The position numbers and the translations under genes were made by a program. The notes under the pieces were generated by a model. The model was not told the DNA's origin and searched no databases. It was given only the letters and a program-made list of their open reading frames with translations. A DNA stretch of 64,000 bases from Clostridiales bacterium (GTDB lineage: Bacteria > Bacillota > Clostridia > Lachnospirales > Lachnospiraceae): assembly GCA_012839295.1 (NCBI GenBank), contig DUNO01000010.1, positions 1 to 64,000 of the forward strand. The letters are read 5' to 3'. Of the stretch, positions 50,886 through 64,000 are shown piece by piece. Every line of letters starts with the position of its first letter. Position 1 is the first letter of the stretch.

Positions 50886-51638
50886 ATGGATATTCAAAGG
50901 ATACTAGAGCAGGTTAAGACAGGGGAGCTTGGGATAGAGGAAGCCGGCGAGCTGTTAAAGAAATTACCATACGAAGACCTGGGCTTTGCCAAGCTGGACC
51001 ATCACAGGGAGCTGCGCTCCGGCTTTGGCGAGGTTATCTTCTGCCAAGGAAAGGATATAACCCACCTTCAAAAAATATATAAGAATTTTTACGAGCATGA
51101 CCGGAATGTGCTGGGAACAAGGGCGACACAGGAGCAGTACGAGAAGGTAAAAGAAATACTGCCAATGGCAGCATATGATCCGCTTTCAAGAATCCTATCG
51201 ATTCAGACAAAGGAGGTAGCGAAGGTTGGCTGCATTGCAGTATGTACGGGAGGTACCGCGGATATCCCGGTAGCAGAGGAAGCGGCGCAGACCGCCGAAT
51301 TCTTCGGCAGCAGGGTAGAACGGATCTATGATGTAGGAGTAGCGGGAATCCACCGGCTGGTATCCAAGCTTGAGACAATCCGTGGGGCAAATTGTGTCAT
51401 AGCGGTTGCAGGCATGGAGGGAGCCCTTGGAAGCGTCGTAGCCGGCCTTGTCGATAAGCCGGTAATTGCAGTTCCCACCTCTGTCGGCTATGGAGCCAGC
51501 TTTGGCGGGATTTCTGCACTGCTTACCATGCTTAATTCCTGTGCGGAGGGTCTTGCGGTGGTCAATATTGATAACGGCTTTGGTGCAGGATACATCAGTA
51601 CCCAGATTAACCGGCTGGCATGCCATACTAAAGATTAG
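50886..51638 (+). CDS. larB: Nickel pincer cofactor biosynthesis protein LarB
   Basis: LarB carboxylates and hydrolyses nicotinic acid adenine dinucleotide in the first step of nickel-pincer nucleotide synthesis. The 250-residue protein has an N-terminal helical part and a C-terminal AIR-carboxylase-like (PurE) domain with CTGGTADIPVAEEAAQTAEF, YDVGVAGIHRL, VAGMEGALGSVVAGLVDKPV and PTSVGYGASFGG, the LarB pattern. larC lies downstream but on the opposite strand; larE is not in the window. Confidence 0.94.
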   Translation: MDIQRILEQVKTGELGIEEAGELLKKLPYEDLGFAKLDHHRELRSGFGEVIFCQGKDITHLQKIYKNFYEHDRNVLGTRATQEQYEKVKEILPMAAYDPLSRILSIQTKEVAKVGCIAVCTGGTADIPVAEEAAQTAEFFGSRVERIYDVGVAGIHRLVSKLETIRGANCVIAVAGMEGALGSVVAGLVDKPVIAVPTSVGYGASFGGISALLTMLNSCAEGLAVVNIDNGFGAGYISTQINRLACHTKD

Positions 51639-53091
51639 CTTTTGCCAAGCTTTTAATTAGCTCGTATATGGACTGGTAATCCTGGCCGGAGGATAGTGCA
51701 AGAGCTTTCACGTTTTCGTATTCCGGATAATAGAAAGTATGTCCCTCATAGTGGCATACCTTAACCCTGGCTTCACCATAAGGGGTCATAATTGTCTGAA
51801 TCTCACGGGGAAGGATGGTTCGGGCAGCCTCGGATTTTCGGATCCCGATGGTTGTGGTGTGGGTAAAGAGGACATTTTCCATAGCCGGAATATGCTCTTT
51901 GCTGCAAATGACACCGATCAAATAAGCCGGACGGTTCTTCTTCATGAAAATGGGGGTATAATAGACATCCTTAGCCCCCTTCTGGAATAGCAGCTCCATG
52001 GCAAATGCCAGGGCTTCACCGGTACAGTCGTCTACGTTGGCTTCAAGGACCCATACCTGGTCTGAGGAAGCAGGAGTATCCGCAGCCTCTATCAGCATGG
52101 CACGCAGAATTCCGCTGGCACCGGAATAATTTCTCTTTCCGGCTCCCAGGCCTATCTTTTTAATCTGAAAATCCTTTGGTAAAGCATCCCTTGTCTTGAT
52201 GGCGGCAACAATGGCTGCACCTGTAGGTGTAACAAGCTCGCCTTTAACGTCAGTAATATGGAGGCGTAATTGGTGTGCTGCGGAGATGTTCACGACTGCC
52301 GGTACAGGAATAGGAAGAAGCCCATGCTGGCACATGATCTGGCCGGTTCCTTCATATAGCTCGGATACGATGACGTCAGTGATGTTTAAATTATCGAGGC
52401 AGATGGCAGTAGCTACAATGTCCACAATAGAATCGATGGCTCCGACCTCATGGAAATGAACCTCATCCAGTGGCTTGGCATGTGCCTTGGCCTCCGCTTC
52501 GGCAATGATGAGGAAAATGTGCTTGGCCAGCTGCTTTGCCCGGGCGGAAATGGAGGAATGGTCTATGATGTCATTGATTTCGGTTAGGTTGCGGTGCTCA
52601 TGATGTCCCAGGACAAGATGGGGGTGGGAGGATTTGGATAAGGCTGGGCTGCTGTGGTGGTGATGTTTGTGGAGATGGTCATGGTGATCATGATCGTTGT
52701 GATCATGGTCGTTATGATTGTGGTCATTATGATCGTGGTCATTATGATCGTGGTCATGGTCACTATGCGCATGATTGTGGTATTTATGGTCATAGTCGTG
52801 CCCGGGGTGATGGGTAGAGTCGTGATTGTGGTTATGATCATGGTTATGTTCGTGATCATGGGTAGATCCATGAATGTGATCTTCTGTTTGGGTTAGAATT
52901 ACATCAAAATCACAGGCGTCAATGCTGTTTTTAGCTCTGCGTCCGAGTTTGATTTGGTAGCCATCTACCTTAAGGCTTTGTAAACCTTCTAATAGTATTT
53001 TTTCATCTGCTCCAAGGTCGAGAAGGGCTGCGACTGTCATGTCGCCGCTGATACCGGAATAGCATTCTAGATATAGTGCTTGTTCTTTCAT
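51628..53091 (-). CDS. larC: Nickel pincer cofactor biosynthesis protein LarC with His-rich insert
   Basis: LarC inserts nickel into the pincer ligand using CTP. The 487-residue protein starts MKEQALYLECYSGISGDMTV and has HFHEVGAIDSIVDIVATAIC, GLLPIPVPAV, ELVTPTGAAIVAAI and VLEANVDDCTGEALAFAMEL, as in LarC (DUF111). An insert at about residues 75-150 consists largely of His with Asp and Asn, a probable nickel-binding store. The start at 53091 is chosen over an ATG six codons upstream on family length. No slippage heptamer, as used by some larC genes, is needed because the frame is intact. The end overlaps larB by 11 bases. Confidence 0.94.
   Translation of the reverse strand: MKEQALYLECYSGISGDMTVAALLDLGADEKILLEGLQSLKVDGYQIKLGRRAKNSIDACDFDVILTQTEDHIHGSTHDHEHNHDHNHNHDSTHHPGHDYDHKYHNHAHSDHDHDHNDHDHNDHNHNDHDHNDHDHHDHLHKHHHHSSPALSKSSHPHLVLGHHEHRNLTEINDIIDHSSISARAKQLAKHIFLIIAEAEAKAHAKPLDEVHFHEVGAIDSIVDIVATAICLDNLNITDVIVSELYEGTGQIMCQHGLLPIPVPAVVNISAAHQLRLHITDVKGELVTPTGAAIVAAIKTRDALPKDFQIKKIGLGAGKRNYSGASGILRAMLIEAADTPASSDQVWVLEANVDDCTGEALAFAMELLFQKGAKDVYYTPIFMKKNRPAYLIGVICSKEHIPAMENVLFTHTTTIGIRKSEAARTILPREIQTIMTPYGEARVKVCHYEGHTFYYPEYENVKALALSSGQDYQSIYELIKSLAKANL
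52654..52870 (-). repeat. Degenerate repeat encoding the LarC His-rich region
   Basis: Short units based on ATGATCATGATCAC-like sequence (plus-strand form GATCGTGGTCATTAT, repeated at 52731-52760) run through about 215 bases. They encode the His/Asp/Asn stretch and could change length by slippage. Confidence 0.8.
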
Positions 53092-53497
53092 GTGAGATCT
53101 CGCTTTCATTTTATGGTTTGTAATGTTATTATAATTGATTTTCTAGCTTAACTTGATTATTTGTGAGAAGAAGGAGTGTAATTGCTTACAATGGATTGAA
53201 TTTGTGATTTTGGTTTTAACCAGAGGATTCAAATAAAAATGAAGCATATTTACAAAACCTTATATATTGTGAATGAAATTTGTTCTCCGGCTCTGAACAG
53301 CATTCTAAAGCAGGTCTAAGCCCCTCATTGCGCTTGCTGCCATATATTATAGCACATAAGATCGGGCTTAAGCAATTTGTAGTAACAAATAGTTTTTGGA
53401 TACGTTTTTTGGATAGTTTGTATTCAGTAACTGTCAGCAAAATAGTAGCATTTGTAAATAAAATACAGATAAAAAAGCAAATTTCGAGCATTTGGTA

Positions 53498-53526
53498 TTT
53501 ACATTCTAACCCAGATGTAGTATAAT
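53498..53526 (+). promoter_or_regulatory. Promoter of the zinc-ribbon gene
   Basis: TTTACA and TATAAT with a 17-base spacer. An ATG overlaps the -10 box, so translation must start further downstream. The stretch from 53110 to 53497 upstream shows no convincing gene on either strand. Confidence 0.75.
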
Positions 53527-53566
53527 GGCATTAATTTTAGAACTACATAGAGAGGGGAAATATAGC

Positions 53567-53812
53567 TTGCTAAAGATTTATATTTGTCCGGAATGTTATA
53601 ACTATAGAATGGTTTCACGTAAACCGGACGCCATTTGCCTTCATTGCGGGGAGCGGTTAGAGCAATGTGATTTTGATTATGGAGTATATATCAATATGAC
53701 TGAAAATGAGCGGAACGAGTATAGAGAGAATTATAAGAAGAGAATGTTGGCTTATGGTGAGAAAGTTCTCGAAGTGAAATCAAAAGAAACCTCAGAAGGA
53801 ACCTTTTTATAG
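53567..53812 (+). CDS. Small zinc-ribbon protein, function unknown
   Basis: The 81-residue protein has a four-cysteine zinc ribbon, CPEC near residue 7 and CLHCG near residue 25, then an acidic helical tail. I place the start at the TTG with AGGGG 9 bases upstream, because the ATG at 53525 lies inside the -10 box. Its stop codon sits within the left arm of the terminator. I cannot assign a function. It marks the boundary of the polysaccharide cluster. Confidence 0.65.
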   Translation: MLKIYICPECYNYRMVSRKPDAICLHCGERLEQCDFDYGVYINMTENERNEYRENYKKRMLAYGEKVLEVKSKETSEGTFL

Positions 53813-53844
53813 AAGTCGTTATTCTATATAGAGGTTCTTTTCAT
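53799..53844 (+). terminator. Intrinsic terminator of the zinc-ribbon gene
   Basis: GAACCTTTTTATAGAA pairs with TTCTATATAGAGGTTC (two mismatches), then TTTT. The stop codon of the gene lies within the stem. Confidence 0.8.
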
Positions 53845-53857
53845 GTCATTTAATAAC

Positions 53858-53871
53858 ATTACATATGTAAT
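53858..53871. promoter_or_regulatory. Perfect 14-bp palindrome, possible operator
   Basis: ATTACATATGTAAT reads the same on both strands. It lies in the 289-base spacer before the first glycosyltransferase gene, where no gene is visible and only a lone TATAAT (54067-54072) without a good -35 hints at a promoter. Confidence 0.4.
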
Positions 53872-54101
53872 TAGATGATCGGAAAAGGAAGGAAAAAGAG
53901 TAGTACAGCCATCGGGTACAGGAAGTTAGCAGGTATTTGTGGGCTTAGTAGGGGTGTGAAATCAAGAAATAAATCCAACCAGTGAAAAATGATGTATAGG
54001 ATATTACCATTGGATTAAGATTTTCATGAGTTTATACACATGTGGCCATATTTGCTGCATGGAGTTTATAATTATTATGTTTTATAATGAAGGAAAGTAT
54101 G

Positions 54102-55049
54102 ATGCAGATATCAGTAGTAATGACAACCTATAATGGAGAAGCATTTATAAATCAGCAATTAGATTCGATCATAAAGCAGACTTTATTGCCTGATGAGATT
54201 CTGGTATGTGATGACTATTCAAATGATAGCACTTGGGGCATATTGGAATCCTATCAGATAAAATATCCGGAATTAATACATATATGCAAAAATGAAAAGA
54301 ATATTGGATTTGAACATAATTTTCTTAATTTACTTAAGAAAGCAGAAGGGGACATTATTTTTTTATCAGATCAGGATGATGTATGGTATTCAAATAAGAT
54401 CAAAAGTATGTATCAAATGTTTGAGCGAAATCCTAATATATTAGCATTATCAACGGCTTATGATTTGATAGATGAATATAACAGTACCTATCGGGATATT
54501 CGCAGTGTCGTTTTTAACAATAATAAAAGATTAAAAAAAATCAGTTGGAAAGATTTTGTGATACATCCCAAATATCCGGGGATGGCAATGGCGGTTCGGA
54601 AATCTTTGTTGAATCAGGTCTCCTGGATTGAATTGTCAAAAGTACCGGCACATGACTGGTTGCTGAACTTATTTGCATCAATACATGACGGGATGTATCT
54701 TTGGGATAATATACTTACCAGCTACAGGCAACATAAGTCCAACGTGATAGGTTCGTCTGCTAATAAGCATATATCTGATGCAAGAGCAATGCGTATCTCT
54801 ACAACTGTTAGTTTATTAAAAACCTATGAACTGTTCTTGGAAATATGTGAGAAACAGAAATATGATAATAATAAAATAGAATTAGGCGAGCGATTGACTC
54901 GTATTTGTAAAAAACGCATGGAATTAATTGAAAGCGAGCGCTTATGGGCTTTGATACGTTGGGATATTTCAAATTATAATTATCTAACCCTTCGTACTTT
55001 TTTAGGGGATGTGTATATGGGATTAAAGATAAAGCTGGAAAAGGGGTAA
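54102..55049 (+). CDS. Family 2 glycosyltransferase
   Basis: The 315-residue protein begins MQISVVMTTYNGEAFINQQL and has the GT-A sugar-nucleotide motif FLSDQDDVWY (DxD) near residue 88, as in rhamnosyltransferase-type GT2 enzymes. It would add a sugar to a lipid-linked surface glycan at the membrane. AAGGAAA 6 bases upstream supports the ATG at 54102 over 54087. Codon use is more AT-rich than in the housekeeping region. The acceptor is unknown. Confidence 0.88.
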   Translation: MQISVVMTTYNGEAFINQQLDSIIKQTLLPDEILVCDDYSNDSTWGILESYQIKYPELIHICKNEKNIGFEHNFLNLLKKAEGDIIFLSDQDDVWYSNKIKSMYQMFERNPNILALSTAYDLIDEYNSTYRDIRSVVFNNNKRLKKISWKDFVIHPKYPGMAMAVRKSLLNQVSWIELSKVPAHDWLLNLFASIHDGMYLWDNILTSYRQHKSNVIGSSANKHISDARAMRISTTVSLLKTYELFLEICEKQKYDNNKIELGERLTRICKKRMELIESERLWALIRWDISNYNYLTLRTFLGDVYMGLKIKLEKG

Positions 55050-55053
55050 TGTT

Positions 55054-55437
55054 GTGATTCATATTATAATGGCGACATATAATGGAGAATTATATATTGA
55101 AGAGCAATTAAACTCTATTATAGCTCAAACATACACGGAATGGAAGTTATGGATTCATGATGATGGCTCAACAGATAACACAGTCGCTATCCTGCAGGAT
55201 TATCAGCAAGTATATCCGGATAAAATTGTGATAATAGAATCTGATAATAAACATCTAGGTGCAAAGAAGAATTACGCATATCTTTATGAGCATGTCCCTA
55301 TTGCTGATTATTATGCATTCTGTGACCAGGATGATATCTGGTCACAGGATAAATTAGACGTACTCATGTCATTTGCCGAAGAAAGTGATCAAACCAGACC
55401 AGCGTTGATTTACCATGATATAAATATTCTTCTATAA
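55054..55437 (+). pseudogene. Truncated family 2 glycosyltransferase (N-terminal half)
   Basis: The 127-residue frame starts (GTG) MIHIIMATYNGELYIEEQLN and keeps HDDGSTDNT and FCDQDDIWSQDKLDVL, then stops after YHDINILL. Related enzymes run to about 300 residues, so the C-terminal acceptor part is missing. No in-frame or shifted continuation is visible before rfbA. It begins 4 bases after the previous gene. It could still be translated, but activity is doubtful. Confidence 0.8.
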
Positions 55438-55503
55438 TTACTGGAAGGCTGGCCAAAGCCTATAAATAAATTACAAAATAGAAGCAAAAGCGAGGGATAC
55501 AAG

Positions 55504-56382
55504 ATGAAAGGAATTATATTGGCAGGAGGATCCGGAACAAGATTATATCCGCTGACAATGGTTACATCGAAGCAGCTGCTACCTGTTTATGATAAACCGA
55601 TGATATATTATCCGCTATCTACGTTAATGTTGGCGGGAATTCAAGATATTTTAATCATATCTACTCCACATGATCTTCCTAATTTTAAGGAGCTATTAGG
55701 GGATGGTTCAAATTATGGAATCAATCTCAGTTACGCAGAGCAGCCTTCTCCGGATGGATTGGCTCAGGCATTTTTGATTGGGGAAGAGTTTATTAATGGG
55801 GGTTCCTGTGCAATGATATTAGGGGATAATATATTCCATGGCAGTGGTTTGACAAAACATCTGAAAGCAGCAGTAGCCAGGGAGAACGGTGCAACTGTAT
55901 TCGGTTATTATGTAGATGATCCGGAGCGCTTTGGTATTGTTGAATTCGATCAGACTGGAAAGGCTATCTCTATAGAAGAAAAACCAAGAAATCCAAAATC
56001 TAACTATTGTGTGACTGGATTATATTTTTATGATAAAAGAGTCGTTGATTTAGCAAAGCGAGTTAAGTTTTCTGCAAGAGGAGAGCTTGAAATAACAGAC
56101 CTTAACAGAATGTATCTGGAGGAGGGCTCTCTGAATGTTGTTACCTTGGGGCGTGGTTATGCTTGGCTGGATACGGGAACCATGGATGCTTTGAGTGAAG
56201 CGGCTGAATTCGTTAAGGTTGTTGAGAAGAGGCAGGGGATTCAAATTGCGGCAATTGAGGAAATCGCATATAAGAACGGTTGGATATCCAGAGAAAAATT
56301 ATTGGAAGCTGCTGAGGTTTATGGCAAATCAAACTATGGCGCTCATTTAAAGAGGGTTGTAGAAGGGAAGGTATTGTATTAA
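55504..56382 (+). CDS. rfbA: Glucose-1-phosphate thymidylyltransferase
   Basis: RfbA makes dTDP-glucose, the first step to dTDP-L-rhamnose. The 292-residue protein starts [20 protein letters not shown], with the nucleotide loop GGSGTRLYP, then [20 protein letters not shown] and [16 protein letters not shown], all standard. GAGGG precedes the ATG. rfbC follows, but rfbB and rfbD are not in the window. Confidence 0.97.
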
Positions 56383-56448
56383 AATTATTAGACAAGGTAC
56401 CTAATTTGATGCCATATAAAATACGGGTTAAAATGAAGGGAAATGAAG

Positions 56449-57018
56449 ATGAAAATAATTAAAACAGAAGTTTTAGATGTATACATATTAGAACCAAGAG
56501 TATTTGGGGACAGTAGGGGCTGGTTTATGGAAAGCTGGTCAGACAGGGAACTAAAGAATGCGGGGATATCTTACGATTTTGTACAGGACAACCATTCCTT
56601 TTCTGCACAGAAAGGAACTTTAAGAGGCCTCCATTATCAAAAAGGAGACGCAGCTCAGGCAAAGTTAGTAAGGTGTACGAAAGGAGCAGTCTTAGATGTA
56701 GCAGTAGATATGCGGCAAGGCTCCCCCACTTATAAAAAATGGGTATCGGTAGAGCTTTCTGCTGATAATAAATGCCAGCTAGTGATTCCAAGAGGTTTTT
56801 TGCACGGATTTATCACTTTGACTGACGATGTGGAATTTTTATATAAGGCTGATAATTTTTATAATTATGAGGCCGATAGGAATATTATCTGGAACGACCC
56901 TGAACTCAGTATTGATTGGGGCACTGAAGCGCCAGTTTTATCTGATAAGGATGCAATGGCACCAATGCTGAAGGATAGCGACGTGGATTTTAAATATGAG
57001 AAAACAGTAGAAATGTAG
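56449..57018 (+). CDS. rfbC: dTDP-4-dehydrorhamnose 3,5-epimerase
   Basis: The 189-residue cupin enzyme shows EPRVFGDSRGWFMESWSDRE, QDNHSFSAQKGTLRGLHYQ (catalytic His), GAVLDVAVDMRQGSPTY and PRGFLHGFITLTDD. It acts third in dTDP-L-rhamnose synthesis. AAGGG 8 bases upstream supports the ATG at 56449 over 56443. It pairs with rfbA. Confidence 0.96.
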   Translation: MKIIKTEVLDVYILEPRVFGDSRGWFMESWSDRELKNAGISYDFVQDNHSFSAQKGTLRGLHYQKGDAAQAKLVRCTKGAVLDVAVDMRQGSPTYKKWVSVELSADNKCQLVIPRGFLHGFITLTDDVEFLYKADNFYNYEADRNIIWNDPELSIDWGTEAPVLSDKDAMAPMLKDSDVDFKYEKTVEM

Positions 57019-57128
57019 AATGAAGATTGGTGGGGATTTTGTTCATCTTATGGTGGATAAGCATCCGCGGCACAGGAAACTGTGAATTGTAAAGAGATAG
57101 TTGGATAATCGATGAAAGGAGGATGTTG

Positions 57129-57998
57129 ATGAAGAAAATTTTAATAACGGGCATTAATAGTTATATAGGGACATCCTTTGAACATTGGGTTCGTGGCCGC
57201 CAGGGAGAATATCAGATCAATACGATTAGCTTAAAGACGTCAGAATGGAAAGAACAGAGCTTTGCATCTTATGATATAATCTTTCATGTAGCAGGAATTG
57301 CGCACGTGGACGCCAACGATAGCACCCAGGAGGAGCAGGATACTTATTACCGGGTGAATCGCGATTTAACTATAGAATTGGCGCGAAAGGCAAAGGAAGA
57401 AGGAGTGAAGCAATTAATATTCATGAGTAGTATTATCGTCTATGGTGATAATACCAATCTTGGGGATACGAGGATTATAACCAGGCATACCAAGCCTACC
57501 CCTTCAAATTGCTATGGAGACAGTAAATTGCAAGCAGAACAGGCCATCTTACCGTTGCAATCCGATGAATTTCATGTAGCTATTCTTCGAGCACCCATGA
57601 TCTATGGAAAAGGCTCTAAAGGGAACTACTCCAGACTGGCAGGTTTAGCAACGAAAACAAGAATTTTCCCCAAGATTCAAAACCAAAGAAGCATGTTGCA
57701 TATTGATAATCTTTGTGAATTCATCCGCCTGATTATAGATAATGACGACAGTGGAATCTTCTATCCTCAAAATGAAGAGTATATTTGTACCTCCGAATTG
57801 GTCCGTCAAATAGCCGCCGCTCATGGTAAAATCCTGCACTTGACATCTGCCTTTAATTCATTGCTGTTTCTGTTTGTTCCAAGACGAATCACCAATAAAA
57901 TGTTTGGAACCTTGATCTATGATAAGAGCATGTCACAATATAAAGATAAATATTGCGTTCGTTCGTATGAAGAAACAATTCAATTAACTGAAAGCTAG
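57129..57998 (+). CDS. NAD-dependent sugar epimerase/dehydratase (extended SDR)
   Basis: The 289-residue protein has the Rossmann start KKILITGINSYIGTSFEHWV (GxNxYIG form), IIFHVAGIAHV, MSSIIVYG, and an SDR active site NCYGDSKLQAEQA (Tyr-x3-Lys). AAAGGAGG 6 bases before the ATG at 57129 sets the start. It resembles UDP-GlcNAc/UDP-Glc 4-epimerase or QuiNAc-type reductase families in capsule clusters; the substrate cannot be read. Confidence 0.88.
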   Translation: MKKILITGINSYIGTSFEHWVRGRQGEYQINTISLKTSEWKEQSFASYDIIFHVAGIAHVDANDSTQEEQDTYYRVNRDLTIELARKAKEEGVKQLIFMSSIIVYGDNTNLGDTRIITRHTKPTPSNCYGDSKLQAEQAILPLQSDEFHVAILRAPMIYGKGSKGNYSRLAGLATKTRIFPKIQNQRSMLHIDNLCEFIRLIIDNDDSGIFYPQNEEYICTSELVRQIAAAHGKILHLTSAFNSLLFLFVPRRITNKMFGTLIYDKSMSQYKDKYCVRSYEETIQLTES

Positions 57999-58012
57999 AA
58001 GAGGATTGTATA

Positions 58013-59146
58013 ATGAAGAGAGTTTTGATGGTAGCTTCCGTAGCTTCAATGATAGATCAATTCAATATGGATAATATCGGGATTTTACAAGGTCTTGGAT
58101 ATGAAGTATATGTGGCGGCGAATTTTCTTAACGGGAACACCAGCTCAAAGCAAAGACTGAATGAATTTATTCAGGAATTAGAAGCTCGAGGTGTTATGCA
58201 TCATCAAATTGACTTTGCAAGAAGTGTTACTCATCTATTATCTAATTATAAAGCCTACAAGCAGTTGAGAAGGTTGATTCAAAGCATGGATTTTCAATTT
58301 ATCCATTGCCATTCCCCCATTGGTGGAGTATGTGCCAGGTTATTGGCCCATAAGAATAGGGTCAAGGTAATATATACTGCCCATGGATTTCATTTTTATA
58401 AAGGTGCATCGCCTATGAAGTGGCTGCTATACTATCCGGTGGAACGATGGTTATCCAGATATACGGATGTATTGATCACCGTTAATGAGGAGGATTATGT
58501 TATTGCTCAGTCACTTCATGCAAAGGAGGTTGTAAAAATTCCTGGAATCGGTATTGATTTAAAGAGCTATGAGAATGTGGCTGTGGATATTGGGGGTAAG
58601 AAAAGAGAACTTGGCATTCCGGAAGGAAGCTTCATCGTTCTATCGGTTGGTGAATTAAGCAAGAGAAAAAATCATGAGATTGTAATAAAGGCCTTAGCAG
58701 AATCGAAGCTATCCAATGTCATTTATCTGATCTGTGGCTTGGGAGATAAGGAAGAGTATCTTAGAGGTTTAGCTTCGAGCTTAGGCGTTGATGTGAAATT
58801 TCTTGGCTATCGTAGTGATATAAGGGATATCTATAAGGTTGCCGATTTATTTGTATTCCCATCCTTACAGGAGGGGCTTCCGGTGGCATTGATGGAGGCT
58901 ATGGCAGTAGGGACTCCAGTTATATGCTCCGACATTAGGGGCAACCGCGACTTAATTGATGAACGTATTGGAGAGCAGCGATTAAATCCACGTGATGACA
59001 AAGGTTTTTCAAATGCAATAAGTAATCTTTATTCTGATAAGATGATGCGAAAAAGCAAAGCTGTGTATAATAGAATGAAAATAAAAGGCTTTAGTAAAGA
59101 TAAAGTAAATGATATAATGACAGAGATATATACCAATTTAAGATAA
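58013..59146 (+). CDS. Family 4 glycosyltransferase (GT-B fold)
   Basis: The 377-residue protein has an N-terminal acceptor domain with FIHCHSPIGGVCARL and YTAHGFHFYKGA, and a C-terminal donor domain with LSVGELSKRKNHEIVIKAL and FVFPSLQEGLPVALMEAMAV, whose E-x7-E motif is typical for GT4 (EpsD/EpsF-like). It would extend a surface glycan. It is the last intact gene before the decayed stretch. Confidence 0.93.
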   Translation: MKRVLMVASVASMIDQFNMDNIGILQGLGYEVYVAANFLNGNTSSKQRLNEFIQELEARGVMHHQIDFARSVTHLLSNYKAYKQLRRLIQSMDFQFIHCHSPIGGVCARLLAHKNRVKVIYTAHGFHFYKGASPMKWLLYYPVERWLSRYTDVLITVNEEDYVIAQSLHAKEVVKIPGIGIDLKSYENVAVDIGGKKRELGIPEGSFIVLSVGELSKRKNHEIVIKALAESKLSNVIYLICGLGDKEEYLRGLASSLGVDVKFLGYRSDIRDIYKVADLFVFPSLQEGLPVALMEAMAVGTPVICSDIRGNRDLIDERIGEQRLNPRDDKGFSNAISNLYSDKMMRKSKAVYNRMKIKGFSKDKVNDIMTEIYTNLR

Positions 59147-59166
59147 TTTATTTAATATAATCTTAT

Positions 59167-59200
59167 ATGAATCTACTGGAGAGATAGCTATTGAACATTA
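59167..59200 (+). repeat. 34-bp direct repeat, left copy (methyltransferase fragment)
   Basis: ATGAATCTACTGGAGAGATA and the next 14 bases match 62664-62697 exactly. In the right copy they encode ESTGEIAIEH of the methyltransferase; in the left copy the same frame reads on only to IIEIK then stop. Thus a piece of a methyltransferase gene lies here without the rest. Confidence 0.95.
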
Positions 59201-59215
59201 TATTATTGAGATTAA

Positions 59216-59556
59216 ATGAAGAAGATACAGATATTAATGTCTACATATAATGGTGAAAACATCTAGATGAACAAATTGAGAGCATCCTACAACAAGACTA
59301 CCCAGACCTTTCTCTTTTAATTTGGGATGATGGTTCGACTGATGGTACTTTAGATGCAGCTAAAAGATATGCAGAACAAGATAATCGTATACAGTAATTC
59401 GTAGGGGAGAACATAGGCGCAAAGAATAGTTTTTTTGATTTGATAAACAAAGTTGACCTCCTGGTAGATTACTATGCTTTCTCAGATCAAGATGATATAT
59501 GACTAGCTAATTAAACTGAATTCAGCAATCAATAATATTGTATTTGATGGTCCGTG
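59216..59556 (+). pseudogene. Decayed family 2 glycosyltransferase
   Basis: Pieces of a GT2 N-terminal half can be read: MKKIQILMSTYNGEN, a frameshift, then LDEQIESILQQDYPDLSLLI and WDDGSTDGTLDAAKRYAEQD, a TAA, GENIGAKNSFFDLINKV, DYYAFSDQDDI, then TGA and TAA, and KLNSAINNI in a further frame. At least two frameshifts and three stops make it a clear pseudogene. The C-terminal half is missing. The remaining bases to 59633 show nothing else. Confidence 0.9.
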
Positions 59557-59633
59557 AAGGTATCTGTTCGCTAAAGAAAAGGTAATAGATATTGAAGAGT
59601 AGAGACATAGTATTAAAGAATTGAGGAGATAAA

Positions 59634-60500
59634 ATGAGTGAAGTAGAGGATAGTAAAACTCTTGGCAGCCCACTTGTATCTGTTATTATCAGAACGTGTG
59701 GAAGACCACATATATTAAAAAACGCTATTGAAAGTGTAGTCAATCAAGACTATGCAAATATTGAAATTGTTGTGGTTGAGGATGGTTCGAGCACCTCGGA
59801 GCACGTAGTAAGAGAATGTTGTAAAAAAGTAAGTTTTCAATATTATCACACGGCAGAGAAAGTCGGTAGAACAGTTGTGGGAAATTTGGGTTTACAAAGA
59901 GCTAAAGGTGAGTATTTTAATTTTTTAGATGATGATGATATACTATTTCACCAGCATATAGATGTTTTGGTAAGTGAGGCAGTTAAACACAATAAATTAG
60001 TTGTATATGCTATTGCTGAAGAGCATCAAATTAAAGAAGGTGGTAAGACATCCTATCCTTATAAGGTGAAGAGAAAATTAGTCAAATTTGCTCAGCAATA
60101 TAATAAGTTATTACTATGCTATAAAAATTATTTACCGATACAAAGCGTTATATTTCATCGGTCTTTGTTTGAACAATACGGAGGATTCGACGAAAGTCTT
60201 GACTATATGGAGGACTGGGATATGTGGGTTCGCTATTCGTCAGTTTGTGATTTCTTTTTTGTGCCTCAGATTACTTCAATTTATTATACACCCTATAAAA
60301 ATAGAAAAAAACAGGAACGTGACATTTTAATGAAAGAAGCGAGAAGAAAAATCATTTTAAAGCATTCAAATTATGATGTACATATAAATGCAGAACAAAT
60401 CAACAATGATATGGAGTATATACTTAATGTTTATACAAAAACAGGACTTTTCTTTTATATGAAAAAAATCAGAGACTTATTATTATATAAGGATACGTAA
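59634..60500 (+). CDS. Family 2 glycosyltransferase
   Basis: The 288-residue protein has PLVSVIIRTCGRPHILKNAI, VVVEDGSSTSEH and FLDDDDILF (DxD), then YMEDWDMWVRYS, a common ED motif of GT2 enzymes. GAGGAG precedes the ATG. It is 8 bases before the ABC permease and probably builds the exported glycan. Confidence 0.9.
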   Translation: MSEVEDSKTLGSPLVSVIIRTCGRPHILKNAIESVVNQDYANIEIVVVEDGSSTSEHVVRECCKKVSFQYYHTAEKVGRTVVGNLGLQRAKGEYFNFLDDDDILFHQHIDVLVSEAVKHNKLVVYAIAEEHQIKEGGKTSYPYKVKRKLVKFAQQYNKLLLCYKNYLPIQSVIFHRSLFEQYGGFDESLDYMEDWDMWVRYSSVCDFFFVPQITSIYYTPYKNRKKQERDILMKEARRKIILKHSNYDVHINAEQINNDMEYILNVYTKTGLFFYMKKIRDLLLYKDT

Positions 60501-60508
60501 GGTGGACA

Positions 60509-61300
60509 ATGAAAGATAAAATTAGTAAAAAAACGAGTGAGATTATATTTATTTGGCAATTTGCTATGGATGATTTTAAAGCAAAATATGCTGGGTCGGC
60601 ATTAGGGGGAACGTGGGCTTTTTTGCAGCCTATAATTACGATTGTTCTTTATTGGTTTGTATTTCAATTGGGATTTAAAACACAGTCCGTAGGAGATTTT
60701 CCTTTTATTTTATGGCTATTATCTGGACTTATACCATGGTTCTTTTTTAGTGATGCAATATCAAATGCAACTGCCAGCATGATGGAATATAATTATTTAG
60801 TAAAAAAAGTGTTATTCAATGTAAATATTCTTCCTTTGGCCAAAATAGTATCTTCTTTATTGGTTCATTGCGTGATGATTCTTTTAACAATTATTATATA
60901 TATGTTTTTTGGATATTGGCCTAATGAGTATTACCTTCAAATACCGATGTATGTGATATATACTGTTATATTGGTATCGGGAATTGTATATATTACTGCA
61001 ACCTTATACGTTTTTTTCAAAGATACAATTCAAATTGTGTCAATTGTTTTGCAAGTCATATTTTGGCTGACGCCTATAGTATGGCAATTTGATGTAATGC
61101 CAGCAGTAACAAGAAAAATACTGATATTTAATCCAGTATATTATATTGTAAATGGTTATAGAACTATTTTTATATATAAGCAATGGATTGGGCAAAATGC
61201 TTGGATGACAGTGTATTATTGGGTGATTGCTCTTTTGTTACTAATTGTGGGTCTAAGGTTGTTTGCTAAATGCAGAGAACACTTTGCAGATGTATTATAG
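60509..61300 (+). CDS. ABC-2 type polysaccharide export permease (Wzm/TagG type)
   Basis: The 263-residue protein has six hydrophobic segments and the conserved N-terminal FKAKYAGSALGGTWAFLQPI and later FWLTPIVW and NPVYYIVNGYR, all typical of Wzm/TagG/RfbA permeases. It would carry lipid-linked polysaccharide across the membrane with the ATPase that follows. Its stop is 8 bases before the ATG of that ATPase. Confidence 0.94.
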   Translation: MKDKISKKTSEIIFIWQFAMDDFKAKYAGSALGGTWAFLQPIITIVLYWFVFQLGFKTQSVGDFPFILWLLSGLIPWFFFSDAISNATASMMEYNYLVKKVLFNVNILPLAKIVSSLLVHCVMILLTIIIYMFFGYWPNEYYLQIPMYVIYTVILVSGIVYITATLYVFFKDTIQIVSIVLQVIFWLTPIVWQFDVMPAVTRKILIFNPVYYIVNGYRTIFIYKQWIGQNAWMTVYYWVIALLLLIVGLRLFAKCREHFADVL

Positions 61301-61308
61301 AGGTAGAT

Positions 61309-62616
61309 ATGGAAGAAAATAATGTAATTATTATAGAAAATATAGTGAAAAAATATAATTTATATGCTAAACCTCAAGATAGATTTCGAGAAGCGATGGG
61401 ATTAAAAAAGAAGTCGTTTCATAGTGAATTTTATGCATTGAACGATATTAGTTTTTATGTAAAGAGGGGAGAGACGGTAGGCATTATTGGGACTAACGGT
61501 TCTGGAAAATCCACCTTATTAAAAATTATAACTGGGGTGTTAGTGCCTTCGCAAGGAAACGTCCATGTGCATGGACGTGTATCAGCATTATTGGAGTTAG
61601 GAGCTGGTTTTAATCAGGAATATACAGGCCTTGAAAATATATATTTAAATGGTAGGATGATGGGATATTCAAGGAAGGAAATGGAGAAAAAAGTAGATGC
61701 TATCGTTGAATTTGCAGAAATTGGTGAATTTATAAATCAACCAGTGAAAACATATTCAAGTGGAATGTTTGCTAGGTTAGCATTTGCGGTTGCTATTAAT
61801 GTTGAACCGGATATTTTAATTGTGGATGAAGCTCTTAGTGTTGGTGACTTGTTTTTTCAGAATAAATGCTTTAAGAAGTTTGAGGAATTAAAAAGTAGGA
61901 ATGTTACAATTCTGTTTGTTTCGCACGATATAGCTAGTGTGCGCCAAATGTGTTCACGTGTATTGTGGATAGAAAAAGGGAAACAAATTATTTTTGATCA
62001 GAGTGATAAAGTCTGTGATATGTATATGGATATGAAACGGAAAGATATGAATAAAGCTTTTACAGGAGAGATGAATGAAGAAAGTAAATATCTCGAGTGC
62101 AAAGATAGACATGGAGTTGCAATGTTCCCTAAAATTGTATGGAAAGAATCTTCAATATACTCAGATAAGTTACAAATTGAATCAGCATTCATTACAGATC
62201 GTAAAGGTGTAGTAAATGTACTTGAAATAGATAATAGCTATACGATCCATGTGGTAGTGAGATTAAATGAGGATATAGATAAACTCATAGTTGGAGTTGT
62301 GGTGGAAAATAATAAAGGTATTCCTTTATACGATCTTAATAACTATATTAACACTGGAAAGGTAATAAGAGGTAATCGTGGTCAGATTATAGAAGTAGAA
62401 TTTAGATTTAGGTTACCACGAATTATGAAAGGACAATATCTTATGTCAGCAGCTGTTGCTAAGGGTACACAAGAGCAGCATATTATGTTGACTTGGCTAC
62501 ATGGAATACAGACAATAGAAATTATTAATAATGGTTATAATTCATCCTATATTGAAATACCTTCGGTAGTTGAATGCAATATATATGATGAAGAAAAAGT
62601 AAAATTTGTAGGATAA
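61309..62616 (+). CDS. Polysaccharide ABC transporter ATPase with C-terminal extension (Wzt type)
   Basis: The 435-residue protein has ABC ATPase motifs: Walker A GIIGTNGSGKSTLLKI (about residues 57-72), TGLENIYLNGRMMG, signature TYSSGMFARLAFAV, Walker B ILIVDEALSVGD and the switch His in FVSHD. After about residue 250 comes a beta-rich extension of some 180 residues like the Wzt C-terminal carbohydrate-binding domain. That domain recognises chain ends in O-antigen exporters. AGAGGT precedes the ATG at 61309; the longer frame from 61270 overlaps the permease. Confidence 0.95.
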   Translation: MEENNVIIIENIVKKYNLYAKPQDRFREAMGLKKKSFHSEFYALNDISFYVKRGETVGIIGTNGSGKSTLLKIITGVLVPSQGNVHVHGRVSALLELGAGFNQEYTGLENIYLNGRMMGYSRKEMEKKVDAIVEFAEIGEFINQPVKTYSSGMFARLAFAVAINVEPDILIVDEALSVGDLFFQNKCFKKFEELKSRNVTILFVSHDIASVRQMCSRVLWIEKGKQIIFDQSDKVCDMYMDMKRKDMNKAFTGEMNEESKYLECKDRHGVAMFPKIVWKESSIYSDKLQIESAFITDRKGVVNVLEIDNSYTIHVVVRLNEDIDKLIVGVVVENNKGIPLYDLNNYINTGKVIRGNRGQIIEVEFRFRLPRIMKGQYLMSAAVAKGTQEQHIMLTWLHGIQTIEIINNGYNSSYIEIPSVVECNIYDEEKVKFVG

Positions 62617-62626
62617 GGAGACAGTA

Positions 62627-63760
62627 ATGAGCGGGCATTATAATGGAGAGAGATTTCTACCAGATGAATCTACTGGAGAGATAGCTATTGAACATTACCA
62701 AAGATACCAATTGGCTATAAATTTTGTGGCTGGAAAGAAAGTTTTAGATGCTGCTTGTGGAGAAGGATATGGAAGTAATTTACTTGCAGAGACAGCGTGT
62801 CAAGTGATTGGTCTGGATATAGATATAGATACGGTTGAAAGGGCAAACGAAAAATACGGAACCTCCAAGTTATCTTATGTCCAGGGCAACATTGAGAAGT
62901 TGCCTTTTGATGATGAAGTATTTGATGTGGTTATTTCTTATGAAACGATTGAGCATGTAGATGGCGTAGCACAAAATAATTTCTTAAAAGAGATTTGCCG
63001 AGTTTTAAAATCAAATGGTATCCTTATTATGTCAACACCAAATAAGGCGGTATATACAGATTTGGTCAGAGGAGAAAATAAGTTTCATATAAAAGAATTT
63101 TATGTAAATGATTATCTTGAATTTTTGAACAACTTCTTTTGTAATATAGATATCTTCTGCCAATATCCTAAAACAGGATATTTTATTACTCAAGAAGGTG
63201 AAGAAAATAATATCATTTATAAAGGAATAAGAAAAGAAGACAGTAGATATATTATAGCTATATGTTCAAATTGTGACTTAAAATATGAAATAGATACGGC
63301 TAGGTTCACTTATTTTGATAGTAAAATGTATTATTTTTTACATGCCCATACACATAGGTTAGAGTCTGAAATTATAGAAATGAAGATTGATATAGATGAT
63401 TTTGAGAAAAAACAAAATGGAACAATCGAAGAGCAGAAGAACTATGTTGTGCACTTAGAAAATGATTTAAAAGAAATAAAAAGGTATAATGAAATTTTAG
63501 AGAGTGATAGAGGAAAACAACATAAATATATTATTCAACTGGAAAATTATTTGAAGGAGCACAAAGAATATATTAACAAATTGGAAAATGATATAAAGGA
63601 TGTAAAAGAATATAATGGAGTTTTAGAAAATGATAGAGGAAAACAAAATGAGTATGTTATGCAATTGGAAAGTGATTTGGAAAAACAAAAGGAATATATA
63701 ACTCGTTTAGAAAAAGATATAAAGGAAAATAATGTTTTTTTACGTAAGAAAAAAAAATAG
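62627..63760 (+). CDS. SAM-dependent methyltransferase with repetitive C-terminal coiled coil
   Basis: The 377-residue protein starts MSGHYNGERFLPDESTGEIA, then a class I methyltransferase domain with VLDAACGEGYGSNLL (motif I, about residues 39-53), VIGLDIDIDTVERA, FDVVISYETIEHV and NGILIMSTPN. From about residue 245 it is a charged coiled coil with a 42-residue repeat (LENDLKEIKRYNEILESDRG...). It follows the Wzt gene by 10 bases. The end lies in an A9 run followed by TAG, so length may vary. By analogy it may cap and measure glycan chains. Confidence 0.88.
   Translation: MSGHYNGERFLPDESTGEIAIEHYQRYQLAINFVAGKKVLDAACGEGYGSNLLAETACQVIGLDIDIDTVERANEKYGTSKLSYVQGNIEKLPFDDEVFDVVISYETIEHVDGVAQNNFLKEICRVLKSNGILIMSTPNKAVYTDLVRGENKFHIKEFYVNDYLEFLNNFFCNIDIFCQYPKTGYFITQEGEENNIIYKGIRKEDSRYIIAICSNCDLKYEIDTARFTYFDSKMYYFLHAHTHRLESEIIEMKIDIDDFEKKQNGTIEEQKNYVVHLENDLKEIKRYNEILESDRGKQHKYIIQLENYLKEHKEYINKLENDIKDVKEYNGVLENDRGKQNEYVMQLESDLEKQKEYITRLEKDIKENNVFLRKKKK
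62664..62697 (+). repeat. 34-bp direct repeat, right copy (inside the methyltransferase gene)
   Basis: It is identical over 34 bases to the left copy 3,497 bases upstream and encodes ESTGEIAIEH near the N-terminus of the methyltransferase. The pair brackets the GT2 pseudogene, a GT2 gene and the ABC exporter. Confidence 0.95.
63454..63735 (+). repeat. 126-bp repeat encoding the methyltransferase coiled coil
   Basis: A 42-codon unit (LEND-type start, DRGKQ in the middle, then a short LE..LK-type half unit) occurs about 2.2 times. DNA copies share strings such as GATAGAGGAAAACAA (near 63508 and 63634, 126 bases apart). Confidence 0.85.
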
Positions 63761-63801
63761 ATTGGCTTATATAGAATATATGGAAGAACAGGAGAGAAAA
63801 G

Positions 63802-64000
63802 ATGGATTTAATATATGTCTCATATAATTCTGAAAAATGGATAGACAAGTGTTTTTCTTCAATCATGCGTTCAGAATATGATTTGAAAGCAGTATCAATT
63901 TATGTAATTGATAATAAATCAACAGATAATTCCCTGAAGAAGTTGAAGGAAAATAGAAGTGCATATAAAAACGATCTTAAGGATTTCGTTATTATTGAAG
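63802..64000 (+). CDS. Family 2 glycosyltransferase, 5' part (runs off the window)
   Basis: The visible 66 codons begin MDLIYVSYNSEKWIDKCFSS and contain YVIDNKSTDNSLKKLKENR, the N-terminal GT2 pattern (V-SYN, then D-N-S-TDNS). AGGAGA precedes the ATG. It continues beyond the right edge, so the catalytic DxD is not seen. Confidence 0.85.
   Translation, partial: MDLIYVSYNSEKWIDKCFSSIMRSEYDLKAVSIYVIDNKSTDNSLKKLKENRSAYKNDLKDFVIIE

What the first reader, a model, noticed from the sequence alone, without database searches (positions are those of the whole stretch)
61309..63760. Candidate chain-length ruler in a Gram-positive: Wzt with C-terminal domain beside a coiled-coil methyltransferase
In E. 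coli O9a, WbdD (methyltransferase/kinase on a coiled-coil rod) ends the glycan chain and sets its length, and Wzt's C-terminal domain recognises the capped end. Here a Wzt-type ATPase with a 180-residue extension is followed, 10 bases later, by a class I methyltransferase with a rod built from 42-residue repeats. I see no kinase domain. A methyl-capping and length-measuring system for a clostridial surface polysaccharide is inferred from this layout.
Basis: partly seen in the sequence, partly recalled or inferred. Interest (0 to 1): 0.85.

Follow-up and report, generated by a model that had tools for sequence, protein, structure and literature searches.

The report
Methyl-capping rod enzyme beside glycan exporter
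A clostridial-type bacterium carries genes that look like a known scheme for capping a growing surface sugar chain with a methyl group, recognising the cap and exporting the chain; the rod-shaped capping enzyme may also measure the chain, but that step is only inferred.

Summary
Window 61309-62616 encodes a Wzt with a true Wzt_C (cap-binding) domain; 10 nt later, 62627-63760 encodes a class I methyltransferase, with no kinase seen, followed by a 111-residue coiled coil. The "42-residue repeat" is a triplet of 14-residue (two-heptad) units; seven unit slots span residues 276-373. A dual GT2 gene follows.

Of 80 loci picked by methyltransferase similarity, 47 have a same-strand Wzt (45 long), and in 36 the methyltransferase starts within 100 nt of the end of wzt. 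In 25 of 32 Bacillota loci with a long Wzt it is the N-terminus of a protein of 800 aa or more. One Undibacterium protein fuses homologues of both our genes. The tryptophan that stacks on the methyl cap in Aquifex is kept (W396).

Methyl capping with Wzm/Wzt in a Gram-positive (Geobacillus WsaE) and WbdD/O7-type rulers are published, so this is a new member of a known kind. Its use is a natural rod-length series in orthologous loci (94 to 193 residues after the methyltransferase). Length measurement is not shown.

The parts
60509..61300 (+). Wzm, membrane subunit of the glycan exporter (263 aa)
   Evidence: ABC2_membrane PF01061 E 6.9e-15; 53-60% identical in the closest syntenic loci L046-L050
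61309..62616 (+). Wzt, ATPase subunit with C-terminal extension (435 aa)
   Evidence: ABC_tran E 1e-24 and Wzt_C E 7.7e-20; match over residues 10-410 to 8dku E 4e-80 and 7k2t E 1e-79; PMC9445017 names 7K2T as full-length Aquifex WzmWzt
62161..62538 (+). Wzt_C cap-binding domain (Wzt residues 285-410), with N344, A382 and W396 at the positions of Aquifex Asn313, Ala348 and Trp362
   Evidence: pocket residues from PMC9445017 passages
62627..63271 (+). class I SAM methyltransferase domain (residues 1-215)
   Evidence: Methyltransf_11 E 1.3e-24; family alignments A1, A3
63416..63748 (+). coiled-coil rod (residues 264-374)
   Evidence: COILS-type score, matrix recalled; 0 of 200 shuffles as long, 4 of 200 reach the peak score
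63452..63745 (+). seven 14-residue (two-heptad) unit slots, residues 276-373, arranged as 42-residue triplets
   Evidence: six of the seven carry L-E-x-D
63802..64000 (+). start of the next gene, a dual GT2 glycosyltransferase (557 aa, to position 65475 of the contig), the likely chain polymerase
   Evidence: fused to the methyltransferase-rod in L103
59634..60500 (+). GT2 glycosyltransferase just upstream of wzm
   Evidence: PF00535 E 7e-22; also upstream of wzm in L048-L050 at 45-50% identity
58013..59146 (+). GT4 glycosyltransferase
   Evidence: PF00534 E 5.5e-35
55504..56382 (+). RmlA-like glucose-1-phosphate thymidylyltransferase
   Evidence: name by eye from the translation; BLAST relatives beside wzm/wzt in some loci; an RmlB match over its cut-off lies elsewhere in the genome
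56443..57018 (+). RmlC-like epimerase
   Evidence: name by eye from the translation; BLAST relatives in some loci

Best explanation
This is an ABC-transporter-dependent glycan assembly locus with terminal methyl capping. Inferred steps: the GT2 proteins build a (probably rhamnose-containing) chain on a lipid carrier in the cytoplasm. The 62627-63760 protein oligomerises through its coiled coil, with the methyltransferase heads held away from the polymerase/membrane end. When the chain's free end reaches the heads it is O-methylated, which stops growth. The Wzt_C domain binds the methylated end and lets Wzm/Wzt export the chain. The rod, about 16-17 nm if 111 residues form one continuous coil, therefore sets a minimum chain length. 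Shown by sequence: the domains, the gene order, the rod, a partly conserved cap pocket and the fusion of both genes elsewhere. Inferred: methylation of the terminal sugar, oligomerisation, length measurement, sugar identity.
For: Wzt_C domain, found in 44 of 47 Wzts scanned. Nearest solved relative is the full-length Aquifex Wzt, whose domain binds 3-O-methyl-mannose. W396, A382 and N344 match its pocket, and these columns are kept in 31, 38 and 37 of 47 rows, ours included. In 80 loci held for methyltransferase similarity, 47 have a same-strand Wzt, and in 36 the methyltransferase starts within 100 nt of its end. A coil of 56 residues or more is found in 36 of 46 scored proteins with a Wzt in the held DNA and 8 of 31 without (Fisher P 6e-6). 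L047, L049 and L050 have the same four genes in the same order, L048 too once its frame is read by hand, and L046 as far as its contig goes. L103 fuses homologues of both our proteins. No kinase among the hits shown for 15 cluster proteins scanned; about ten other cluster ORFs were not scanned. Precedents: O8 WbdD is methyltransferase-only, rod changes shift chain length in O9a, WsaE caps with 2-O-methyl in a Gram-positive.
Against: Nothing here measures a glycan. The methyltransferase's PDB matches are generic class I enzymes; no entry named WbdD is among the best 60 of 148, so kinship with WbdD is not shown. Partial correlation of methyltransferase with Wzt_C distances, given Wzt ATPase domain and Wzm, is -0.08 (1689 of 2000 permutations as high or higher; 41 proteins sets): no sign of co-evolution. 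His350 of Aquifex is alanine here, as in 39 of 47 rows. Our rod stops at residue 377 with a short basic tail, whereas L027, L029 and L103 have about 105 residues between the coil and the glycosyltransferase. Rods also occur beside Wzt of only 244-249 aa (L030, L031, L065, L088), and a long Wzt beside a methyltransferase without a coil (L087, L094). Outside Bacillota the link of long coil with Wzt is not significant (6 of 13 against 6 of 25, P 0.27). In the phylum sample, Wzm and Wzt at 45% or more stand near only 4 of 18 methyltransferase places. [quoted passage not shown]
Confidence: 0.66

Rival explanations
1. The methyltransferase caps the chain and Wzt_C reads the cap, but the rod is only an oligomerisation and polymerase-docking scaffold; length is set by kinetics or by enzyme stoichiometry.
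For: [quoted passage not shown] Our rod lacks the C-terminal segment seen in the fused relatives read. Longest coil segments vary from 47 to 218 residues in 32 Bacillota loci with a long Wzt.
Against: The motif spacing keeps heptad phase (L-E-x-D steps of 14 or 28 in ours, L048 and L049). In O9a, changing the rod changes modal length.
Confidence: 0.22
2. The methyltransferase decorates internal sugars, or is not required for export; Wzt_C binds a repeat-unit feature that is not a methyl cap.
For: Methyltransferase and Wzt_C distances do not co-vary beyond the rest of the transporter. Three of the six Aquifex sugar- or methyl-contacting positions compared differ here (Leu300 to Val, Thr346 to Ser, His350 to Ala).
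Against: Placement directly behind wzt in 36 of 80 loci. Keeping of the methyl-stacking tryptophan in 31 of 47. The characterised systems read about here use such pairs as terminator and cap reader.
Confidence: 0.13
3. The locus is a decaying fused gene: the methyltransferase-rod has lost its polymerase half and no longer works as a terminator.
For: 25 of 32 Bacillota methyltransferases with a long Wzt are 800 aa or longer. Our protein ends in lysines at an A-tract just before the stop.
Against: Both genes are intact. The split is shared by L047, L048, L049 and L050, with the same dual GT2 downstream. The downstream gene has its own ATG behind an AGGAG-type site, and its frame has a stop upstream of that ATG.
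Confidence: 0.04

Closest known systems
WsaE with Wzm/Wzt, S-layer glycan cluster of Geobacillus stearothermophilus NRS 2004/3a (PMC2943079, passages and section 15 read; PMC3898925, passages read)
   Same: Gram-positive; wzm and wzt next to a protein with an N-terminal methyltransferase that puts a 2-O-methyl cap on a rhamnan; rml genes in the cluster; Wzt predicted to bind the methylated chain
   Different: WsaE has methyltransferase and two rhamnosyltransferase domains in one chain; here they are two genes. 'coiled-coil' has 0 hits in that review.
WbdD/WbdA of E. coli O8 and O9a (PMC3482155 and PMC5082667, passages read)
   Same: Terminator with N-terminal methyltransferase and a C-terminal coiled-coil domain (O9a), separate polymerase, capped product required for export; O8 WbdD is a simple methyltransferase
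   Different: O9a WbdD has a kinase and a C-terminal region that recruits WbdA; methyltransferase kinship was not demonstrated; polymer and host envelope differ
ORF6 of Klebsiella pneumoniae O7 (PMC11231755, passages read)
   Same: Methyltransferase, coiled coil and two GT2 rhamnosyltransferase modules serving one ABC-transporter pathway
   Different: One chain, with a kinase domain and an extra carbohydrate-binding module; cap is methyl-phosphate
Aquifex aeolicus WzmWzt (PDB 7k2t, 8dku; PMC9445017, passages read)
   Same: Closest solved Wzt over nearly its whole length; pocket residues Asn313, Ala348 and Trp362 kept
   Different: His350 to Ala, Leu300 to Val, Thr346 to Ser; Gram-negative O antigen of D-rhamnose/D-mannose

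Membership tests
Cap-recognising Wzm/Wzt exporters | Wzt carries a C-terminal Wzt_C (cap-binding) domain | tested here: met
   PF14524 E 7.7e-20, above cut-off
Cap-recognising Wzm/Wzt exporters | methyl-cap pocket residues of Aquifex kept | tested here: inconclusive
   N344, A382, W396 identical; V331 and S380 similar; His350 position is A384
Cap-recognising Wzm/Wzt exporters | jelly-roll fold and dimer of the domain | not tested
Cap-recognising Wzm/Wzt exporters | export depends on the cap | not testable with these tools
   needs a mutant and glycan analysis
Coiled-coil terminator/ruler (WbdD type) | terminating enzyme at the N-terminus of an extended coiled coil | tested here: met
   methyltransferase residues 1-215, coil 264-374; that it terminates is inferred
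Coiled-coil terminator/ruler (WbdD type) | C-terminal membrane-associated helix and polymerase recruitment site | tested here: inconclusive
   only a short basic tail after the coil; the fused relatives read have a longer segment; recruitment cannot be tested
Coiled-coil terminator/ruler (WbdD type) | kinase domain (O9a; absent in O8) | tested here: not met
   no kinase in the 25 of 27 Pfam hits shown, about 50 residues of room; not needed for O8-type
Coiled-coil terminator/ruler (WbdD type) | sequence kinship of the methyltransferase with WbdD | tested here: inconclusive
   no entry named WbdD among the best 60 of 148 PDB sequences; the other 88 were not shown
Coiled-coil terminator/ruler (WbdD type) | rod length sets chain length | not testable with these tools
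   needs glycan sizing of rod variants
WsaE-type methyl-capping polymerase of Gram-positives | gene follows wzm-wzt and carries the methyltransferase N-terminally | tested here: met
WsaE-type methyl-capping polymerase of Gram-positives | glycosyltransferase domains in the same chain | tested here: not met
   separate dual GT2 gene; no single frameshift joins them; fused in L103 and in 23 of 32 Bacillota loci with a long Wzt
WsaE-type methyl-capping polymerase of Gram-positives | 2-O-methylation of terminal rhamnose | not testable with these tools
   needs enzyme assay or glycan NMR

The most novel reading that the evidence does not exclude
In Gram-positive bacteria the length of capped surface glycans is tuned in quanta: the terminator's rod gains or loses whole two-heptad (14-residue, 42-nt) units by tandem duplication, so orthologous loci form a natural allelic series of rulers. 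The same rod, inside WsaE-like fused proteins, would be the missing length factor for S-layer-type glycans.
Probability: 0.33. Interest if true: 0.7.

Novelty: new member of a known kind. Interest (0 to 1): 0.5.

Why it matters
[quoted passage not shown] This survey predicts a coil of at least 47 residues in all 32 Bacillota methyltransferases beside a long Wzt, most of them WsaE-like large proteins. It also finds a split form in clostridia whose rods differ about two-fold between orthologous loci. That gives a ready-made set of rulers for testing whether rod length predicts glycan length outside Gram-negative LPS.

Tried and rejected
Frameshift joining the rod gene to the dual GT2 gene: rejected; the GT2 frame has a stop upstream of its ATG, and the third frame runs into a stop inside the GT2 gene.

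Rod-length variation inside the genus: only our genome of 34 has a match at E<=1e-30. In the family sample it was 1 of 299 at E<=1e-20, our own. No same-species series was available.

Co-evolution of methyltransferase and Wzt_C: negative (41 sets, that is ours and 40 of the 80 loci, had all parts and a Wzt extension).

Kinship with WbdD through solved structures: not shown (60 of 148 matches seen).

What the glycan is attached to: the genome has S-layer-homology domains (9 matches) and LytR-CpsA-Psr proteins (5 matches), which does not decide between them.

Literature: the listings showed no paper on a Gram-positive coiled-coil terminator or a Blautia locus of this kind beyond the WsaE and WbdD/Klebsiella papers. 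Only titles and abstract starts were seen for the others, and most subscription papers are not held. Hagelueken 2015 was not held and is cited through PMC5082667.

Structure prediction and fold comparison could not be run; residue mapping and profile searches were used instead.

Full report
WHAT IS THERE. The window is bases 1-64000 of contig C9 (88,496 bases) of a 6.36 Mb draft genome. The nearest relatives of the methyltransferase are MAGs named Blautia (63-64% identity) and Lachnospiraceae (54-57%), so a clostridial host is a fair inference. Gene order: RmlA-like 55504-56382, RmlC-like 56443-57018 and SDR 57123-57998 (names by eye), GT4 58013-59146, GT2 59634-60500, Wzm 60509-61300, Wzt 61309-62616, methyltransferase-rod 62627-63760, dual GT2 63802-65475. 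An RmlB match over its cut-off lies on another contig. GC content is 44-51% over the first 52 kb of the window, 38% at 52-60 kb and 31% at 60-64 kb, as in a horizontally acquired surface-glycan cluster.

WZT. Residues 285-410 match Pfam Wzt_C (E 7.7e-20, cut-off passed). The best solved matches, over residues 10-410, are 8dku (E 4e-80) and 7k2t (E 1e-79); PMC9445017 names 7K2T as full-length Aquifex aeolicus WzmWzt. The isolated extension still finds the Aquifex cap-binding domain (8dky E 2.3e-5, 6o14 E 2.6e-5) and, weakly, 2r5o, which I recall as the E. coli O9a domain (E 0.044). In Aquifex the 3-O-methyl group sits in a pocket of Leu300, Thr346, Ala348 and Trp362, with Asn313 and His350 binding the sugar (passages). 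The chain numbering is native plus one. The matching residues here are V331, S380, A382, W396, N344 and A384. Over 47 aligned Wzts (ours and 46 relatives; two have a gap here because they lack the domain), W is kept in 31, A382 in 38, N344 in 37, H391 in 38 and A384 in 39. So the methyl-stacking tryptophan and the asparagine are kept while the His350 contact is not. Wzt_C was found in 44 of the 47.

METHYLTRANSFERASE AND ROD. Residues 1-215 are a class I SAM methyltransferase. A COILS-type score with a recalled matrix gives one coiled coil at 264-374. Of eight control stretches from the same cluster, seven gave none and the first GT2 domain gave one 32-residue call. The coil is built of 14-residue units (HLENDLKEIKRYNE and so on, residues 276-373); the 42-residue repeat is a triplet of these. 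No kinase is seen among the 25 of 27 Pfam hits shown, and there is little room for one.

RELATIVES. In a phylum sample, 17 of 398 genomes, ours included, have a methyltransferase match at E<=1e-20. Of 18 places in other genomes, Wzm and Wzt stand near four: L027 and L029 with long Wzt, L030 and L031 with Wzt of 244-249 aa. In 47 of the 80 there is a Wzt on the same strand in the held DNA, 45 of them 380 aa or longer; in 36 the methyltransferase starts within 100 nt of the end of wzt. Three of the 80 (L091, L100, L102) had no methyltransferase ORF called and were left out of coil counts. Of 39 Bacillota loci (listed by hand from the titles; one, Selenomonas, has an outer membrane, recalled), 33 have Wzt, 32 long, 28 adjacent. 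In 25 of these 32 the methyltransferase protein is 800 aa or longer, and 23 of the 25 show a BLAST match to one of our cluster's glycosyltransferases, as in WsaE. Coils of 56 residues or more: 36 of 46 scored with a Wzt against 8 of 31 without (Fisher P 6e-6). Within Bacillota it is 30 of 33 against 2 of 6 (P 0.006); outside Bacillota 6 of 13 against 6 of 25 (P 0.27). Some loci without Wzt are on short contigs; restricted to 64 loci with more than 2.5 kb upstream it is 34 of 43 against 5 of 21 (P 3e-5).

SPLIT FORM AND FUSION. L047, L049 and L050, and L048 after setting its frame by hand, have wzm-wzt-methyltransferase/rod-dual GT2 exactly as here; L046 agrees as far as its contig goes. Undibacterium L103 carries one 1067-aa protein after wzt that matches our methyltransferase-rod (residues 5-327, 33%) and then our dual GT2 over its full length (36%). 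This fusion supports joint function.

ROD LENGTH. Residues after the methyltransferase: ours 162, L045-L047 94, L050 157, L048 and L049 193. These totals do not themselves differ by multiples of 14, because the ends differ too. L-E-x-D stands at steps of 14, with one step of 28 each in ours and L049, giving seven unit slots in ours and nine in L048 and L049; L045-L047 and L050 have the motif once. L048 and L049 show 42-nt tandem DNA repeats (4.8 and 3.6 copies) matching at 85 and 81%. Other rods show different heptad-multiple periods: 28 in L057 and L079, 35 in L054 and L068. Of 50 rods of 56 residues or more, 11 had a top lag reached in at most 5 of 200 register-keeping shuffles, and in 10 of these 11 the lag is a multiple of 7; heptad bias itself favours such lags. 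This looks like growth by duplication of whole coil modules.

MECHANISM. The best reading is termination by methylation of the growing end, a rod that keeps the methyltransferase away from the polymerase, and export licensed by Wzt_C. Precedents, all from passages unless stated: O9a WbdD, where rod changes shift modal length and the heads stand about 200 A away (PMC5082667); O8 WbdD, methyltransferase only (PMC3482155); K. pneumoniae O7 ORF6 and the statement that the strategy is widespread (PMC11231755); Geobacillus WsaE, a 2-O-methyl cap in a Gram-positive, methylation independent of length in vitro (PMC2943079, section 15). Our rod would be about 16-17 nm at 0.15 nm per residue (textbook value).

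AGAINST. No co-evolution of methyltransferase and Wzt_C beyond the transporter. The rod lacks the C-terminal segment of the fused relatives read. Exceptions exist both ways (L030, L031, L065, L088; L087, L094). The peak coil score is reached by 4 of 200 shuffles, though not its length. Nothing was folded, because the predictor was off. No glycan is known.

VERDICT. Real and well explained: a probable Gram-positive member of the methyl-capped, Wzt_C-gated export class. The value lies in the natural rod-length series and in the coiled coil inside WsaE-like proteins, which I did not see described in the listings and passages.

Noticed in passing
55054-55437: A 127-aa GT2-like ORF that looks truncated compared with its 320-aa neighbour at 54087-55049; possibly a broken glycosyltransferase gene (by eye).
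   Followed up: no
L005:3981-8206 (contig C9 66980-71205): A 586-aa membrane-like protein without Pfam match at E<=1e-5, a GT2 that looks like a polyprenyl-sugar synthase, a small membrane-like protein and a flippase stand together; they resemble a module that adds side-chain sugars after export.
   Followed up: partly
L005:9249-13762 (contig C9 72248-76761): Nucleotidyltransferase, dehydratase, epimerase and RmlC-like genes that look like a CDP-deoxysugar pathway, followed by UDP-galactopyranose mutase, hint at unusual sugars in the polymer or a second glycan.
   Followed up: partly
window 52000-64000 and L005: GC content drops from 44-51% to about 30% across the cluster, and the methyltransferase has no match at E<=1e-30 in the other 33 genomes of the genus searched.
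   Followed up: partly
50886-53109: Two opposed genes that look by eye like LarB and LarC; the second carries a long His/Asp-rich stretch.
   Followed up: no
L054 7965-9116 and L068 2280-3512: Methyltransferase rods in Eubacterium plexicaudatum and a Lachnospiraceae strain have a 35-residue (five-heptad) repeat instead of 14.
   Followed up: partly
L030 7450-8751: A methyltransferase with a coil stands beside a Wzt of 249 aa without a C-terminal extension, so the rod does not always go with a cap-binding domain.
   Followed up: no
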